7,132 bases of DNA, taken from the NCBI GenBank assembly GCA_020631315.1, contig JAHDHM010000189.1, positions 1 to 7,132 on the forward strand, given 5' to 3'. Shown here in pieces: positions 1,481-7,132 of the stretch. The notes under the pieces are model-generated. The model did no database searches. It saw only the letters and a program-made list of their open reading frames with translations, and was not told where the DNA came from. Numbering within the stretch: position 1 is the stretch's first letter; every line of letters starts with the position of its first letter. The position numbers and the translations under genes are program-made. Source of the DNA: Acidimicrobiales bacterium. GTDB lineage: Bacteria; Actinomycetota; Acidimicrobiia; Acidimicrobiales; Poriferisodaliceae.

Positions 1481-2800
1481 GTGACCACGATCGGCCGTCC
1501 GGTTGAGGTCGCGGTCTTCGACGCGTCTCAATCGCTCAGCCGGCCGGGGCTGACCGAGCGTGGCGCGACACTGATGCTCCTGTTCATTCTGGGCTTCGGC
1601 GTGCCGACGACGTGGTTCCGGGCGTTCGGCGAGTTCGGCGCCGTTTCCGACAGCGACCCGATCACCCAGGTGACCTTCGTGGCGCTCTTCGGGTACTGCC
1701 TGTTTCGGATGCTCGGGAACGAAGTCGTGATGGTCCGAGCGCTCCAGCGGGCCCCGTGGGTCGTTGCGTTCGTGTCGCTTGCAGGTCTCTCCGTCATCTG
1801 GACGTCGGAGGTGGCGCTCACCTTCGTGAACGCCGTCGCGCTTGTCCTCACCACGTTGTTCGCCGCGTACCTCTTCGCTCGCTACGACCTGCCGGAGATC
1901 ATGTTGATGATCGGGTTCGCGTGCGCGGTCGGGGCGTTCGCCAATCTTGTCTGGGTGCTGGCGTTCCCCCAGTTCTCGAACACCAACCTCGGCTGGAGCG
2001 GCGTTCTCACGGACAAGAACACCTTCGGCCGGCTGACGGTCTTCGGCGTGACCCAGATCCTGCTCGCCTACGGTGTCGACCGCCGACGGCGGCTCTTCTG
2101 GTTCGGGTCGTCCGGGACTCTCGTGTTCCTCCTGGTCGGTTCGGCGTCGGCGACGTCGTTGGTCTCGGGTATCTGCCTCGCCGTCGCCGTGGTGGTCTTC
2201 CGCCTGTTCCGGGCGAGGAAGACGCTCTTCGGTGTCGTCATCCTGGCGTACGTGATCGGTGTTTCTTCCATTGCGTTCGTGCTTCTGGTCGAGATCGACT
2301 TCGTGACCGGCTTGTTCGGCAAGGAAGCAACGCTCACCGGCCGGACGCAGCTGTGGGCGCTCCTGCCCCCGTACATCTTCGATCGGCCGTTCCTGGGCTA
2401 CGGCTACACGGGCTTCTGGACCGGGTGGTTCGGCCCGAACCACGACGTCTGGATCGACTTCGGCAAGGACCTGCCGCACGCCCACAACGGAGCGCTCCAG
2501 GTTGCGCTGGACCTCGGTCTGGTCGGGCTCGGCTTCCTCACCATGGCCTACGTCCGCGGTGTTGCGTTCGCGACCCGGTTCATCCAGTCCACGCCGGGTG
2601 CCGCCGGACTCTGGCCACTCACCACCTTCACGGCATGCATCCTGCTGTCGGTCTCGGAATCGGGTGTGCAAGGACGGAACCTGCTGTGGGTCTCGTTCGT
2701 CGTCGCCGCACTCACCGTCTCGGGCCACACGAAAGACGCCCGCGACCGGAAGCTCGCCGCCGCTCGGGCGAGAGCGGCGGCGCTCGCAGCACAGTCGTGA
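1481..2800 (+). CDS. Wzy-like polysaccharide polymerase / O-antigen ligase family protein
   Basis: This 439-residue integral membrane protein probably joins lipid-linked repeat units into a polymer on the outer face of the cytoplasmic membrane. About 11-12 hydrophobic segments can be seen, the first at about 29-46 and the last near 410-420, with a basic Ala/Arg-rich cytoplasmic tail. The LTDKNTFGR stretch in the middle, the GRTQLW motif (G287, R288) and the HAHNG motif (H335, N336) in the long loop before the last helices fit the Wzy_C/O-antigen ligase family. In that family conserved Arg and His residues of this loop are needed for transfer. The GTG start at 1481 is chosen for its ribosome binding site. 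The stop overlaps the next start (GTGA), so translation is probably coupled. Placement beside Wzz and Wzx genes favours polymerase over ligase, but the sequence alone does not separate the two, nor does it give the sugar substrate. Confidence 0.85.
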   Translation: MTTIGRPVEVAVFDASQSLSRPGLTERGATLMLLFILGFGVPTTWFRAFGEFGAVSDSDPITQVTFVALFGYCLFRMLGNEVVMVRALQRAPWVVAFVSLAGLSVIWTSEVALTFVNAVALVLTTLFAAYLFARYDLPEIMLMIGFACAVGAFANLVWVLAFPQFSNTNLGWSGVLTDKNTFGRLTVFGVTQILLAYGVDRRRRLFWFGSSGTLVFLLVGSASATSLVSGICLAVAVVVFRLFRARKTLFGVVILAYVIGVSSIAFVLLVEIDFVTGLFGKEATLTGRTQLWALLPPYIFDRPFLGYGYTGFWTGWFGPNHDVWIDFGKDLPHAHNGALQVALDLGLVGLGFLTMAYVRGVAFATRFIQSTPGAAGLWPLTTFTACILLSVSESGVQGRNLLWVSFVVAALTVSGHTKDARDRKLAAARARAAALAAQS

Positions 2801-3777
2801 GAGTGCTCGTGCACCCGCCTCCCAAGCCGGGTGATGCGTTCATCTCGGCGTGGTCGTCGTCGTTGGCCGCTGAAGTCGAGCTCGGGGCCCTGACGCTGCG
2901 CTCAGCGATCCGAGAGCCGAATGCCCTCGTGCACGGCCACTGGCCGGAGCACCTGCTCCACGACCGGGCGCGGCCGATCCTCAAGCTGATTCACGGTTCC
3001 GTGCTCGCAGCGGTCCTGATCGCTCGGCGCGGTCCGCTGGTGCTCACCATGCACAACCGGCAGCCCCATCTGGGTTTCCGATCGTTCGTCGATCGCACGA
3101 TCTACCGTCTCATCATCCGCCGAGCCGATCACGTCGTCCGGCTGCTCGACGCGGCCGACCCCGAAGACGGTCCGTGGTTCACCCGGCCATCGACCGTGAT
3201 CCCGCTGGCCCCCATTGACGCGCCCCTCGACGCCTCGCCTCCACCCCCGCCCGCTCCGCCCGTTCGGCTGCTTCACCTCGGCTCGATCTCGCCGTACAAG
3301 TGCCAGGTGGACGTCCTCGAAGCGCTCGAGCCCCGGATCCGTGCGGGAGAGGTCGAGCTCACCGCCGTCGGCCGCGTCCTCGACGACGGTGTCGGAGCCC
3401 GGCTTCGTCTCGCGGCAGAGCGCCTCGACGGCTTCCGACTCATCGCCGAGCACGTCGACGCCGAGCGCCTCGAGACCGAACTCCGAGCATGTCATCTCAC
3501 CATCGGGGTCCAGCGAGACTCCTACAACTCCGGGGTACCCGCCACGGCACTTCCAGCCGGGCGCCCGGTCGTGCTGACCCGCGGTCCACAGTCTCGTGAC
3601 CATCGCCGCCGTTTCGGCACGGAGTGGATTCTCCAGATCGACCAACCGGAGTCGCCCGAGGAGTGGGTGGCGCTGCTCGAGGGGTTCTCGTCGCCGACGG
3701 GCGATCCACCGAAGCTGTCATCGCTGCGCGAGATGGCCGAAGCACACCGAGCCCTGTACGAGATGCTCGTTCGCTGA
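2797..3777 (+). CDS. GT-B fold glycosyltransferase of the HWPE type
   Basis: This 326-residue soluble protein without membrane helices probably adds one sugar to the lipid-linked repeat unit on the cytoplasmic side. The N-terminal half opens with a beta strand and early loop (VLVHPPPKPGD), then HGHWPE (46-51) and LTMHNRQPH (83-91). These resemble the 'LHWPE...TVHN' pattern of a group of exopolysaccharide GT-B enzymes. A proline-rich linker (147-155) joins the C-terminal Rossmann domain, which has HLGSISPYK (160-168) and YNSG (243-246) followed by PAGRPVVL. The EX7E motif of typical GT4 enzymes is absent: the aligned positions are Ser242 and Thr250. Length is somewhat short for GT-B enzymes. 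The start is the GTG in the GTGA overlap with the polymerase stop. The same frame stays open far upstream (to about 1612), but that part only shadows the polymerase. The donor and acceptor sugars cannot be told. Confidence 0.8.
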   Translation: MRVLVHPPPKPGDAFISAWSSSLAAEVELGALTLRSAIREPNALVHGHWPEHLLHDRARPILKLIHGSVLAAVLIARRGPLVLTMHNRQPHLGFRSFVDRTIYRLIIRRADHVVRLLDAADPEDGPWFTRPSTVIPLAPIDAPLDASPPPPPAPPVRLLHLGSISPYKCQVDVLEALEPRIRAGEVELTAVGRVLDDGVGARLRLAAERLDGFRLIAEHVDAERLETELRACHLTIGVQRDSYNSGVPATALPAGRPVVLTRGPQSRDHRRRFGTEWILQIDQPESPEEWVALLEGFSSPTGDPPKLSSLREMAEAHRALYEMLVR

Positions 3778-3816: not shown

Positions 3817-5499
3817 ATGTATCGTGGGGCAGGGGGACGCAGCTGCAGGCCGCTCAGCTTGCTCGCGGTCGCTGCCATCCTGTTCCTGATCGTCATCGCG
3901 CTCACTCCGTCCCGCCCGGTCGGGGTGATGGGGCGCCAGGTCGAGCGCCAGGTGATTCATGTCGCATCGACCGGGTCGGCAGCCGGTGACGGCTCGGCCC
4001 AGCGGCCCTACCGGGAACTCCAGCAGGCGATCGATGCCGTCGCAGGCCCGGCGAGGATCGAGGTCGGCTCGGGGCTCTATGCCGCGGCGATCATCAGCGG
4101 TCGGACGGACATCGAGATCGTGGGCTCGGCCGGCACAACGTTTTCCGATGGTGCTTACGACCGTCGGGCCGCGTTGCGGATCGTCGGATCGCAGAACATC
4201 AGGGTCAGCGACCTCCAAGTGCGTACGTCGCTTGTCGGGGTGCTCGTCGAATCCTCTGCGGCGATCGAGCTCGTCGGCCTCGAGGTCCACGATGTCGGAC
4301 AGGAAGGCATCCACATCCGGTACAACTCGAACGACGTCCTGGTGGCCGATTCGATCATCTCACTGACGGGTCAGCGGCCCGGCTCGGACGACCGTTTCCC
4401 CTACTCGAAGTATGGCGAAGGTGTCTACATCGGGACCGGGACGGGCGATCCCGACTACACCCGCGATGTCCACATCCGCGACAACGACATCAGCAGAACC
4501 ACGGCCGAAGCGATCGACATCAAGCCACGGACAAGCGACATCGTCGTGGAGTGGAACGACATCCACGACATCGAGACCAACACCTCGGGTGCTGTCGTCG
4601 TCGGTATCGGTCCGCTCGAGTACGGCGATCCCAACGTGATCATCCGCTCCAATCTGCTGTGGAACATCTCGACCAGTTCCCCGTACAGCGACGGCAACGC
4701 CGTGACCGTGAGTGCTCCAGCGACGGTGGAAGCGAACGTCATCATCGGGACCAAGCACTTCGGCGTGCTGACCGACGGGAACTTCGGCACGAGCCGCGCA
4801 GTCGAGCTCCGCAACAACGTCATCACGGCAACCGGTCGGGATCCGATCGGGAGTTGGAACGAACCCAACGGTGCGATCGTGTCGCTCGATGGGAACTTGA
4901 CGGGAAGCGCCGCCGAAGCCGTGCTCGGTCCCTCGCCGATCTCGGGCGGCACCCCGACCGCAGCGGCCTACTCGTTGCGGGCCGACCTGGCGGACGGGCC
5001 GTCGGCGACCACCACGACGTCAACCGTCCCGGCCTCCACCACATCGACGACCCTGCCGGCCGAGACGACCTCGTCGACGACATCGGGACCCACGACGACA
5101 TCGGTATCGGTGTCCGAGACCACGGCGCCGGGCGCTGCTCCGACCACGACGATCGGCAGGAATCAACCCGTCGATCCGGTCGCGGTGGCCCCGACGGCGA
5201 CCCCCGACCCGCTTCAGCCCTCGTCCCCGGCCGACCCGGCGATCGAGGTCGCGCGCCCGGACGACGCCGTGGGACTCGACGGAACGATCGAGACCGGGGA
5301 GCCCGTCCGTCAAACCGACCCATCAGAGCCGCCGGCGACGATCACCGCGGCTTCCGAACACCCGGAGCCTCCGTCGGTGCTCGCGCTCGCAGAGGCCGAG
5401 GACGCGACCAGCCGGGGAACCTGGATCGCCTTCGCCGTGGCGGCGGGCGGCTTCGTGATGACCGTCGCCGCTGCGCGCGAGATGTGGCGTCAGCGCTGA
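3817..5499 (+). CDS. Membrane-anchored right-handed parallel beta-helix protein with Thr-rich stalk (paralogue 1)
   Basis: This 560-residue protein has an Arg-containing N-terminus and a membrane helix or uncleaved signal (about 13-29). A right-handed beta-helix follows (about 46-390), shown by repeated strand-turn units with many Val/Ile and Asn/Asp (such as DVHIRDNDI and VEANVIIGT). Then come a Thr/Ser/Pro stalk (about 395-450), a further acidic, Pro-rich spacer, and a C-terminal membrane helix (about 536-553) ending in MWRQR. The beta-helix would lie outside the cell between two anchors. Motifs shared with the next gene are GQEGIH (161-166), RFPYS (193-197), GEGVYIG (200-206), EAIDIKP (231-237) and TSGAVVVGIGP (256-266). 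Such folds occur in polysaccharide lyases, epimerases, hydrolases and binding proteins; catalysis is not proven here. ATG 3817 is the first start after an in-frame stop at 3775, with no clear ribosome binding site. The operon context suggests action on the exported polysaccharide. Confidence 0.85.
   Translation: MYRGAGGRSCRPLSLLAVAAILFLIVIALTPSRPVGVMGRQVERQVIHVASTGSAAGDGSAQRPYRELQQAIDAVAGPARIEVGSGLYAAAIISGRTDIEIVGSAGTTFSDGAYDRRAALRIVGSQNIRVSDLQVRTSLVGVLVESSAAIELVGLEVHDVGQEGIHIRYNSNDVLVADSIISLTGQRPGSDDRFPYSKYGEGVYIGTGTGDPDYTRDVHIRDNDISRTTAEAIDIKPRTSDIVVEWNDIHDIETNTSGAVVVGIGPLEYGDPNVIIRSNLLWNISTSSPYSDGNAVTVSAPATVEANVIIGTKHFGVLTDGNFGTSRAVELRNNVITATGRDPIGSWNEPNGAIVSLDGNLTGSAAEAVLGPSPISGGTPTAAAYSLRADLADGPSATTTTSTVPASTTSTTLPAETTSSTTSGPTTTSVSVSETTAPGAAPTTTIGRNQPVDPVAVAPTATPDPLQPSSPADPAIEVARPDDAVGLDGTIETGEPVRQTDPSEPPATITAASEHPEPPSVLALAEAEDATSRGTWIAFAVAAGGFVMTVAAAREMWRQR
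4999..5155 (+). repeat. Low-complexity Thr/Ser-rich coding repeat (stalk)
   Basis: Imperfect runs of ACC, ACG and TCG codons encode an irregular Thr/Ser/Pro segment (for example TTTTSTVPASTTSTTLP) inside the first beta-helix gene. It is probably an extended stalk through the cell envelope and possibly an O-glycosylation target. Linkers of this kind are common in exported actinobacterial proteins. It is prone to slippage, so its length may vary between strains. Confidence 0.6.
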
Positions 5500-5598
5500 G
5501 GCCCCCGCCGCCCCCGCTGCGCTCGTGGGTCCCGATACCATTTCCCGATCCGTCGGATCCGCCTCGAACTCCTCCTCGGGCTCGCGATTCTCGCCTCG
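5500..5598 (+). other. Open in-frame extension upstream of the second beta-helix gene, encoding a signal anchor without a normal start
   Basis: From the codon after the upstream TGA (5497-5499) to GTG 5599 the frame has no stop and no ATG, GTG, TTG or CTG codon. Its translation is Arg-rich, then a clear signal anchor: RRIRLELLLGLAILASV reads on into VAVGIVGIASG of the annotated gene. Third codon positions are mostly G or C, as in the neighbouring genes. Reading ATC at 5548 as a start would give MRRIRLELLLGLAILASV, a textbook n-region plus hydrophobic core. No ribosome binding site is visible before 5548. A frameshift from GTG 5525 is conceivable but has no visible slippery site. Confidence 0.55.
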
Positions 5599-6855
5599 GT
5601 GGCGGTGGGCATCGTCGGCATCGCAAGCGGCAGCGACGAGGTCCCCGCGATCTCGTTCGACGTGGGTGCTCCTGACCAGGCTGCCGAGGTCGTCGACACG
5701 ACGCTCCCGTCGACGACGAGTACGGTGACGTCGACGTCGGAACCGTCCTCGTCCACGCAGCGTCAACCATGGATCTACGTGGATCCGGCGGGAGACGACT
5801 CCCGGAACGGGCAATCCTCGGCGCAGTCGGTCCGGACGCCGGAGCGCGCACTCGCCCTTGCCGAGCCGGGCGACACGCTCCTGTTCGCCGCCGGTCGTTA
5901 CGGCCCACTCGTGATCGAGGGACGAGAGGACCTCGAAATCCGTGGTCTCGGAGAGGGCGACGCCACGTTCAGTTCCGGCTCCTACGAAGTCGACGCAGGT
6001 ATCCACGTTCGTGACTCCTCGATGATCGTCATCGTCGGCCTTGCCGTTCGGGAGTCGCTCTGGGGTGTGCAGGTCGAGCGGTCTTCGGACGTCGCCATCG
6101 ATCGTCTCGACATCTCCGATCTGGGGCAGGAGGCGATCCACGTTTGGGACAACTCGACCCGCGTCTCGATCACTCGCAACACCATCAGCGACACGGGGAA
6201 CCGGCCCGGCGACAACGGCCGTTTTCCCTACTCGACGTTCGGCGAGGGCATCTACCTCGGATCTGGGAGTGTGCTGGGCGATGGGACCAACGACGAGACG
6301 TCGGACGTCCTCGTCGAGGCGAATCTCATCGAGCGGACGAGCGCGGAAGCGATCGACATCAAGCCCTTCGTGCGCAACGTCACCGTGACAGACAACGTCG
6401 TCCGAGACGTGGCGACGGCAACCTCCGGGGCCGTGGTGGTCGGGATCGGGCCGAAGGTGTATCCGGATCCGAGCGTGGTGATCAGCCGAAACGTGATCCT
6501 CGACGTGAGCCGCACCAGCCAGTTCCGCGACGGCAACGCCATCCGGGTGAGTTCGCCGGCACTCGTCGCCGAGAACATCGTGATCGGTGCACAACATCAC
6601 GGCATCGTCGTCGACGATCAGAGCGATGCAGAAGGAAGCGGCCTGATCCGGATCGTCGACAATCTCGTCGCCCGAACCGGGTTGGAAGCGATCTCGGACC
6701 AATCAGGTGGTGCGCTCACCGTCGAGATCGAGGGCAACGAGACCGATCTCGCCATCGATGACCTCGCAGTGGAACTCGCTCGCAATGCCGCTGCGGACGG
6801 CCGACTCTGGGCCGAGTTGTGGCCGCTTCTCACGACTGCCGACGGCGAAGGGTGA
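5599..6855 (+). CDS. Exported right-handed parallel beta-helix protein (paralogue 2), start uncertain
   Basis: From GTG 5599 this gives 418 residues, but that start cuts through a hydrophobic signal anchor coded upstream, so the real protein probably begins earlier (435 residues if from ATC 5548). Using that numbering: signal anchor to about residue 28, Thr/Ser stalk (about 50-70), then the entry of a DUF1565-like beta-helix (WIYVDPAGDDSRNG, ending in AAGRYGPLVIEG). The helix continues through GQEAIH (193-198), RFPYS (225-229), GEGIYLG (232-238), EAIDIKP (267-273) and TSGAVVVGIGP (292-302), ending in a short helical tail. It is a clear paralogue of the preceding gene: about half the residues in the motif core are identical by eye. 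It has the stalk before rather than after the helix, and no C-terminal membrane segment. It probably acts at the cell surface on the locus's polysaccharide; enzyme or binding protein cannot be decided. Its stop overlaps the flippase start. Confidence 0.82.
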   Translation: MAVGIVGIASGSDEVPAISFDVGAPDQAAEVVDTTLPSTTSTVTSTSEPSSSTQRQPWIYVDPAGDDSRNGQSSAQSVRTPERALALAEPGDTLLFAAGRYGPLVIEGREDLEIRGLGEGDATFSSGSYEVDAGIHVRDSSMIVIVGLAVRESLWGVQVERSSDVAIDRLDISDLGQEAIHVWDNSTRVSITRNTISDTGNRPGDNGRFPYSTFGEGIYLGSGSVLGDGTNDETSDVLVEANLIERTSAEAIDIKPFVRNVTVTDNVVRDVATATSGAVVVGIGPKVYPDPSVVISRNVILDVSRTSQFRDGNAIRVSSPALVAENIVIGAQHHGIVVDDQSDAEGSGLIRIVDNLVARTGLEAISDQSGGALTVEIEGNETDLAIDDLAVELARNAAADGRLWAELWPLLTTADGEG

Positions 6856-7132
6856 AGACCCGTACCGCCTCGTCCCCTCCATCCGGAGCAGAGGGGCACC
6901 CGAGCCTCGGGACGAACACCGGATGGGCACTCGCCTCCGAGGTGAGCCAACTCGGCTTCGGACTCGTCGTGCTGTTCGCCAGTGCGCGGGCGCTCGGCGA
7001 CGAGCAATACGGGCGATTGGCGGCCGTGCTCGCTTCGGCGCTCGTTCTGTCTTCGCTGGCCCAACTCGGGGCGCAGCAACTGACCCGTTCGGTCAGCCCC
7101 AACGTTCACCGGCCGGGCGCTCCGTCCAACCG
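6852..7132 (+). CDS. Wzx-type polysaccharide flippase (3' partial)
   Basis: This frame starts at GTG 6852, overlaps the previous stop in GTGA, and runs open to the window end (93 full codons). After a polar N-terminus of about 20 residues comes a first membrane helix (about 24-44), then ARALGDEQYG (45-54), a second helix (about 56-73) and LGAQQLTRSVS. The pattern of helix, 'A-R-x-L-G-x-x-x-Y-G', helix, 'L-G-x-x-x-L-x-R' is typical of the N-terminus of oligosaccharide flippases of the MOP superfamily. These move the undecaprenyl-linked repeat unit across the cytoplasmic membrane. Position in an operon with a polymerase and Wzz/BY-kinase supports this. The remaining helices (family usually 12-14) lie beyond the window. 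GAAGG sits directly against the start, too close for a normal ribosome binding site, so initiation is probably coupled to the upstream gene. Confidence 0.8.
   Translation, partial: MKTRTASSPPSGAEGHPSLGTNTGWALASEVSQLGFGLVVLFASARALGDEQYGRLAAVLASALVLSSLAQLGAQQLTRSVSPNVHRPGAPSN

What the first reader, a model, noticed from the sequence alone, without database searches (positions are those of the whole stretch)
5497..5601. Second beta-helix gene lacks a usable start codon and is in frame with the upstream gene across a single TGA
The sequence directly shows a hydrophobic signal anchor preceded by several Arg codons, coded in frame upstream of GTG 5599. There is no ATG, GTG, TTG or CTG between the upstream TGA (5497) and 5599. 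Beginning at GTG 5599 would leave only a stub of the anchor. Three readings are open: non-canonical initiation at ATC 5548, stop readthrough of TGA giving one protein of about 1012 residues, or a mutation or sequencing error (for example ATG to ATC). Readthrough is topologically sensible: helix out-to-in, Arg-rich cytoplasmic loop (MWRQR, then GPRRPRCARG), helix in-to-out, second beta-helix outside.
Basis: partly seen in the sequence, partly recalled or inferred. Interest (0 to 1): 0.72.

Follow-up and report, generated by a model that had tools for sequence, protein, structure and literature searches.

The report
Separate gene with odd ATC start
In a piece of DNA from an uncultured bacterium, a gene for a surface sugar-polymer enzyme seems to lie right behind a promoter of the kind that starts the message at the first codon, but that codon reads ATC instead of ATG or GTG, most likely a one-off mutation or base-call error rather than a new way of starting or extending a protein.

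Summary
In detail: between TGA 5497 and GTG 5599 there is no in-frame ATG, GTG, TTG or CTG, and the anchor is coded upstream of 5599. Readthrough is not supported: the coding signal is absent at 5500-5547 and strong after it; bh1 and the six relatives aligned end in a hydrophobic stretch and short tail; a capped search with the joined 1012-aa frame returned 7 proteins, none fused. In 1137 ORFs of four relatives such a box stands at -12 of ATG/GTG 105 times, of ATC twice, against about 4.5 per control offset. Of 20 homologous ORFs 4 have it before ATG/GTG, including the two closest second-gene homologues; 16 do not. In Mycobacterium smegmatis only ATG/GTG started leaderless messages (PMC4633059). 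So bh2 is most likely a separate leaderless-type gene whose start codon departs from the rule, by substitution or consensus error. A working AUC start is not excluded.

The parts
3817..5499 (+). bh1: first beta-helix protein, 560 aa: N-terminal hydrophobic segment, beta-helix, Thr/Ser/Pro-rich linker, C-terminal hydrophobic stretch, tail MWRQR, TGA stop
   Evidence: (Pfam Beta_helix 2.7e-11)
5497..5499 (+). TGA stop of bh1; read as a true stop
5500..5547 (+). 48-nt gap between bh1 and bh2, not coding-like in frame 1 (-12.4 bits)
5536..5541 (+). TACCAT, TANNNT-type -10 box at -12 to -7 of A5548; one of 6 TANNNT on the + strand of the window, none on the - strand
   Evidence: function inferred
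5548..5550 (+). ATC codon at the predicted +1; inferred start position of bh2
   Evidence: inference
5548..6855 (+). bh2: second beta-helix protein, 435 aa counted from 5548: anchor helix 4-22, low-confidence linker, beta-helix about 75-395
   Evidence: (Pfam Beta_helix 2.4e-14, scanned from 5599)
6241..6255 (+). GEGIY motif of bh2, matched to Glu181/Tyr184 of alginate lyase PsAly (6kfn)
6343..6363 (+). AEAIDIK motif of bh2, matched to Glu216/Asp219/Lys221 of PsAly
6852..7130 (+). next gene, from a GTG that overlaps the bh2 stop; hydrophobic, no NCBIfam match for the 93 aa present; flippase-like only by inference; runs off the contig

Best explanation
bh2 is a gene of its own, not an extension of bh1. 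It is built like a leaderless gene: the -10 box TACCAT sets transcription to begin at A5548, and that first codon should be the start, giving an N-terminal anchor (RRIR plus LELLLGLAILASVAVGIVG) and an outside beta-helix of the PsAly polysaccharide-lyase type. In this contig the first codon is ATC, not ATG/GTG. The most likely reason is a change confined to this lineage or to this consensus sequence (a start-codon substitution or a base-call error). If the base is real, translation should be weak, and perhaps also that of the gene overlapping the bh2 stop. Shown: the box and its spacing, the coding contrast, the intact frame, and the ATG/GTG rule in relatives. Inferred: the transcription start, the start position, and mutation versus error.
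For: Frame 1 scores -12.4 bits at 5500-5547 and +11.7 at 5548-5598; a start at 5548 scores 26.1, at 5500 18.6, at 5599 15.9. TANNNT stands at exactly -12 of 5548. In 1137 ORFs of four related genomes (first 60 codons) it stands at -12 of ATG/GTG at 105 sites, against 66 of 65,320 other in-frame codons. The two closest second-gene homologues in genomes have it 13 and 12 nt before ATG and GTG; 4 of 20 homologous ORFs have it at 12-14. ATC is not enriched at -12: 2 seen, about 4.5 per control offset. In M. smegmatis all but 547 of 343,242 selected reads had ATG/GTG at the leaderless position; ATC was the chosen negative control (PMC4633059, passages and section 11 read). No listed SD-like word stands within 20 nt of 5548 or 5599.
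Against: The sequence around the box fits the relatives' sites poorly (percentile 1.9% for 40 nt upstream, 3.8% for -18 to -1), and TACCAT is the box at 1 of 105 sites. The same pattern occurs a second time in the window, at 3103 inside the glycosyltransferase-like gene, where no start is expected. No -35 match was found. The coding boundary is blunt (27.9 at 5536, 26.9 at 5557), and for bh1 it falls 36 nt after the ATG. 16 of 20 homologous ORFs lack the box at 12-14. Lack of an SD word does not set bh2 apart: the starts at 3817 and 2797 have none either. The closest relative, P0003, is also annotated from inside its anchor, so a non-RTG start might be shared rather than a one-off. In M. tuberculosis mutated start codons lowered but did not abolish reporter expression (PMC9094748, passages seen).
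Confidence: 0.72

Rival explanations
1. Genuine non-canonical initiation: ATC 5548 is used in nature as a leaderless (AUC) start, perhaps to keep expression low.
For: In 30 infC loci of the same family the start-like codon is ATA (28) or ATC (2), and 25 of the 30 have no in-frame NTG upstream, so the group seems to initiate at ATH codons. The bh2 frame and its catalytic motifs are intact. Sister protein P0003 is also annotated from inside its anchor. Residual expression after start-codon mutation is reported in M. tuberculosis (PMC9094748, passages).
Against: Both infC loci with ATC, and 20 of 30 in all, have an SD-like word within 20 nt; bh2 has none. ATC is not enriched behind -10 boxes in 1137 ORFs, and the only ATH candidate without a nearby NTG (an ATT) had the reverse coding signal. 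ATC was the negative control for leaderless starts in M. smegmatis (PMC4633059). P0003 may be clipped: homologue P0018 is annotated from an internal ATG though an in-frame GTG lies 11 codons upstream.
Confidence: 0.1
2. Readthrough of TGA 5497 makes one 1012-residue protein with two outside beta-helices.
For: The two genes are in the same frame with one stop between them, and the topology would be sensible.
Against: 5500-5547 is not coding-like. bh1 and six aligned relatives end in a hydrophobic stretch and a short tail; three weaker hits, P0049-P0051, do not. The 1012-aa query gave 7 hits from a capped candidate list: six of 566-621 aa, and one of 1050 aa that, read by eye, has one beta-helix behind a different N-terminal part. 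P0047/P0003 and P0048/P0008 are separate proteins with equal longest-contig lengths. Neighbours share a frame by chance about one time in three. No Rfam match at 5300-5800.
Confidence: 0.03
3. Translation begins at GTG 5599, giving a 418-aa protein without a working anchor.
For: It is the first NTG in the frame, and the database protein of this contig has this length of 418 aa.
Against: 5548-5598 scores as coding (+11.7 bits). Hydropathy of the N-terminus falls from 2.63 to 1.18, while 17 of 20 homologues reach 1.8 or more. No listed SD-like word is near.
Confidence: 0.06
4. An indel, real or artefactual, hides a start in another frame, such as GTG 5525.
For: GTG 5525 exists in frame 2.
Against: No TANNNT stands 12-14 nt before it (positions), and frame 2 scores only 0.8 to 2.2 bits at 5524-5560.
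Confidence: 0.07

Closest known systems
Leaderless genes of Actinobacteria (Mycobacterium: PMC4633059)
   Same: A TANNNT box 6 nt before the first codon and no SD word; the same geometry is common in the relatives
   Different: First codon is ATC, not ATG/GTG
infC, the textbook example of AUH initiation (recalled)
   Same: An Ile codon is the only start-like codon before the anchor; ATC itself occurs in 2 of 30 infC loci here
   Different: 20 of 30 infC loci, and both with ATC, have an SD-like word and an ATH codon is found in all 30; bh2 has no SD word, and its two nearest readable relatives have ATG/GTG
Alginate lyase PsAly (PDB 6kfn, PMC6796002)
   Same: Right-handed beta-helix; catalytic Tyr184/Lys221 and cation ligands Glu181/Glu216/Asp219 matched in bh2
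   Different: 21% identity; Arg156 falls on a Trp in bh2 (read off); anchor and linker in front; lies in an exopolysaccharide-type operon; substrate unknown

Membership tests
Leaderless actinobacterial gene | -10 box 6-7 nt upstream of the first codon | tested here: met
   TACCAT 5536-5541, 6 nt before ATC 5548
Leaderless actinobacterial gene | ATG or GTG as first codon | tested here: not met
   Codon is ATC
Leaderless actinobacterial gene | No Shine-Dalgarno sequence before the start | tested here: met
   No listed SD-like word in 20 nt; also true of the starts at 3817 and 2797, so weak
Leaderless actinobacterial gene | Mapped 5' end of the RNA at the start codon | not testable with these tools
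   No RNA data
Stop-codon readthrough gene | Coding signal continues after the stop | tested here: not met
   -12.4 bits at 5500-5547
Stop-codon readthrough gene | Fused homologues, or a known recoding element downstream | tested here: not met
   No fused protein among 7 hits of a capped search; no Rfam match
infC-like AUH initiator | AUH start conserved in relatives | tested here: inconclusive
infC-like AUH initiator | SD sequence before the AUH codon | tested here: not met
   None at 5548; but only 20 of 30 infC loci have one by the same word list
PsAly-type polysaccharide lyase | Right-handed beta-helix fold | tested here: met
   AlphaFold2 mean pLDDT 86.9; best PDB match 6kfn, E 3.9e-10
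PsAly-type polysaccharide lyase | Catalytic Tyr and Lys, cation ligands Glu, Glu, Asp | tested here: met
   E233, Y236, E267, K272 in 31 of 31 rows; position 270 Asp in 24, Glu in 7, Asp in bh2
PsAly-type polysaccharide lyase | Uronan lyase activity | not testable with these tools
   Needs an enzyme assay

The most novel reading that the evidence does not exclude
A natural leaderless message that initiates at AUC, possibly shared with the sister species carrying P0003, against the ATG/GTG-only rule for leaderless initiation.
Probability: 0.1. Interest if true: 0.55.

Novelty: new member of a known kind. Interest (0 to 1): 0.25.

Why it matters
As it stands it is a caution for annotation: the database start of this gene cuts most of the anchor off, and the promoter, not the codon, hints where the gene begins. 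If reads and the sister species confirmed ATC, it would be a natural test of the rule that leaderless initiation needs ATG or GTG.

Tried and rejected
Readthrough: disfavoured on coding signal, protein ends and lack of a fused hit. Closer relatives at DNA level: two genome-contig scans (none confirmed; 54 loci, best 49%), one viral-contig scan (none confirmed), searches of two families of 39 and 19 genomes (18 repeats the family of 17, and 67-68 that of 66, so they added nothing) and of 397 genomes of the order, where only 4 candidates per genome were scored. Nothing above 49% identity was found, so the codon of the sister with P0003 (59%) could not be read. A third protein search, with P0003, gave no further protein closer than 47% apart from P0003 itself and the window's own protein. 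A search for ATH starts behind -10 boxes in 1137 ORFs gave one candidate, an ATT with reversed coding signal. The first search for infC starts used a wrong pattern and found none of 30; it was redone. A paper search for leaderless + Acidimicrobi + promoter found 0 papers; other listings were used only to choose papers.

The pattern was written after seeing the site, so its chance expectation (0.03) is not an independent test.

Full report
Observation. The window is a 7132-bp contig without a held genome. It looks like part of an exopolysaccharide operon: from the contig's start a tyrosine-autokinase-like gene (1-1476; TIGR01007), a Wzy-type polymerase/ligase (1481-2800; Wzy_C), a glycosyltransferase-like gene (about 2797-3777; only sub-threshold Pfam matches), two beta-helix genes (bh1, bh2), and the start of a hydrophobic protein at GTG 6852 overlapping the bh2 stop (no NCBIfam match). 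Hydropathy of the N-terminus is 2.63 from 5548 and 1.18 from 5599; 17 of 20 homologues reach 1.8 or more. The nearest genome homologues lie in Acidimicrobiales and other actinobacterial MAGs, so the host is probably of that group (inference).

Not readthrough. With codon statistics learnt from the window's own genes, frame 1 scores -12.4 bits at 5500-5547 and +11.7 at 5548-5598. In-frame 16-codon stretches of those same genes have a median of +7.9, out-of-frame ones -8.3; this is an in-sample yardstick, and one reverse-strand frame also scores +7.8 at 5548-5598. With a second scoring, a start at 5548 scores 26.1, at 5500 18.6, at 5599 15.9; the boundary is blunt (27.9 at 5536, 26.9 at 5557), and for bh1 it falls 36 nt after the ATG, so the method cannot fix the exact codon. 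bh1 and the six relatives I aligned end in a hydrophobic stretch (17-residue hydropathy 1.75-2.55) and a short tail, basic in most; the weaker hits P0049-P0051 do not end so. The 1012-aa query, scored on a capped candidate list, returned 7 proteins: six of 566-621 aa and one of 1050 aa that, read by eye, has one beta-helix behind a different N-terminal part. P0047 (bh1-like) and P0003 (bh2-like) share a longest-contig length of 6950 bp, and P0048 and P0008 share 35009 bp. That suggests separate neighbouring genes in relatives, but those contigs could not be read.

Promoter. TACCAT at 5536-5541 followed by TTCCCG puts ATC 5548 at the predicted first base of the message. TANNNT occurs 6 times on the + strand of the window and never on the - strand. 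In stretches of four related genomes (1,651,305 bp, 1137 coding-like ORFs from a simple caller, first 60 codons of each open frame), TANNNT stands at -12 of ATG/GTG 105 times, at -13 58 times and at -14 31 times, with single-digit counts per genome at the other printed offsets, 8-11 and 15-29. Among 65,320 other in-frame codons 66 have it at -12. Leaderless genes are therefore probably common in this group. The two closest second-gene homologues in genomes have the box 13 nt before ATG (L055, 49%) and 12 nt before GTG (L056, 43%); 4 of 20 homologous ORFs have it at 12-14 and 16 do not. Against this: the sequence around the window's box resembles the relatives' sites poorly (percentiles 1.9% and 3.8%); the box-plus-ATCCG pattern also occurs at 3103, inside the glycosyltransferase-like gene; and no -35 match was found.

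Why ATC is odd. At -12 ATC was seen 2 times in the four genomes against about 4.5 per control offset, and at -13 and -14 never; only one ORF had an ATH codon behind a box with no NTG nearby, an ATT with reversed coding signal. In M. [quoted passage not shown] ATC, the presumed negative control, showed low activity (0.2%) at the leadered position with a Shine-Dalgarno sequence (PMC4633059; passages and section 11 read). On the other side, mutated start codons in M. tuberculosis lowered but did not abolish reporter expression (PMC9094748, passages seen). In 30 infC loci (of 34 genomes with a match) the start-like codon is ATA in 28 and ATC in 2, with no in-frame NTG upstream in 25; 20 of the 30, including both with ATC, have an SD-like word within 20 nt, which bh2 lacks. 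The best account is therefore a leaderless-type gene whose start codon departs from the rule in this lineage or in this consensus sequence. I cannot tell substitution from error without reads.

A caution. P0003 is annotated from inside its anchor too (MLLSLAIAA). That could hint at a shared non-RTG start. But at least one other member is clipped by annotation: P0018 is annotated from an internal ATG although its DNA has an in-frame GTG 11 codons upstream.

What the protein is. AlphaFold2 (31 sequences: the window, 27 of the 43 other hits and 3 of the 7; mean pLDDT 86.9) gives an N-terminal helix 4-22 at low confidence, a low-confidence linker and a beta-helix from about 75 to 395. The best structural match is alginate lyase PsAly (6kfn, E 3.9e-10), also the best profile match (E 5.3e-19). 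Its paper names Tyr184 and Lys221 as likely catalytic residues and Glu181, Glu216 and Asp219 as cation ligands (PMC6796002, passages seen). All have counterparts in bh2: four positions are identical in 31 of 31 rows, and the fifth is Asp in 24 (bh2 among them) and Glu in 7. bh1 carries the same motifs. bh1 and bh2 are thus likely anchored, outward-facing enzymes that trim or modify the polymer made by this operon (inference); the substrate is unknown.

Noticed in passing
L125-L154 (infC loci of the G001 family): The start-like codon of infC is ATA in 28 and ATC in 2 of 30 loci; 20 of 30, including both with ATC, have an SD-like word within 20 nt.
   Followed up: yes
window 3820-3825: TATCGT, another TANNNT, lies inside the first codons of bh1; the geometry used for bh2 would put +1 at 3832 (GGG), where there is no ATG/GTG. 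Unexplained; may be chance.
   Followed up: partly
window 4414-4524 and 6241-6363: Both beta-helix proteins keep the GEG(I/V)Y and AEAIDIK motifs that hold the catalytic residues of alginate lyase PsAly.
   Followed up: yes
window 2797-2800 and 6852-6855: GTGA overlaps link wzy to the glycosyltransferase-like gene and bh2 to the next gene, so loss of bh2 translation might reduce the next gene's product.
   Followed up: no
P0018 / L080: This homologue is annotated from an internal ATG although an in-frame GTG lies 11 codons upstream, so annotated N-termini in this family can be clipped.
   Followed up: partly
window 3103-3119: The box-plus-ATCCG pattern of bh2 occurs a second time, inside the glycosyltransferase-like gene.
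   Followed up: no
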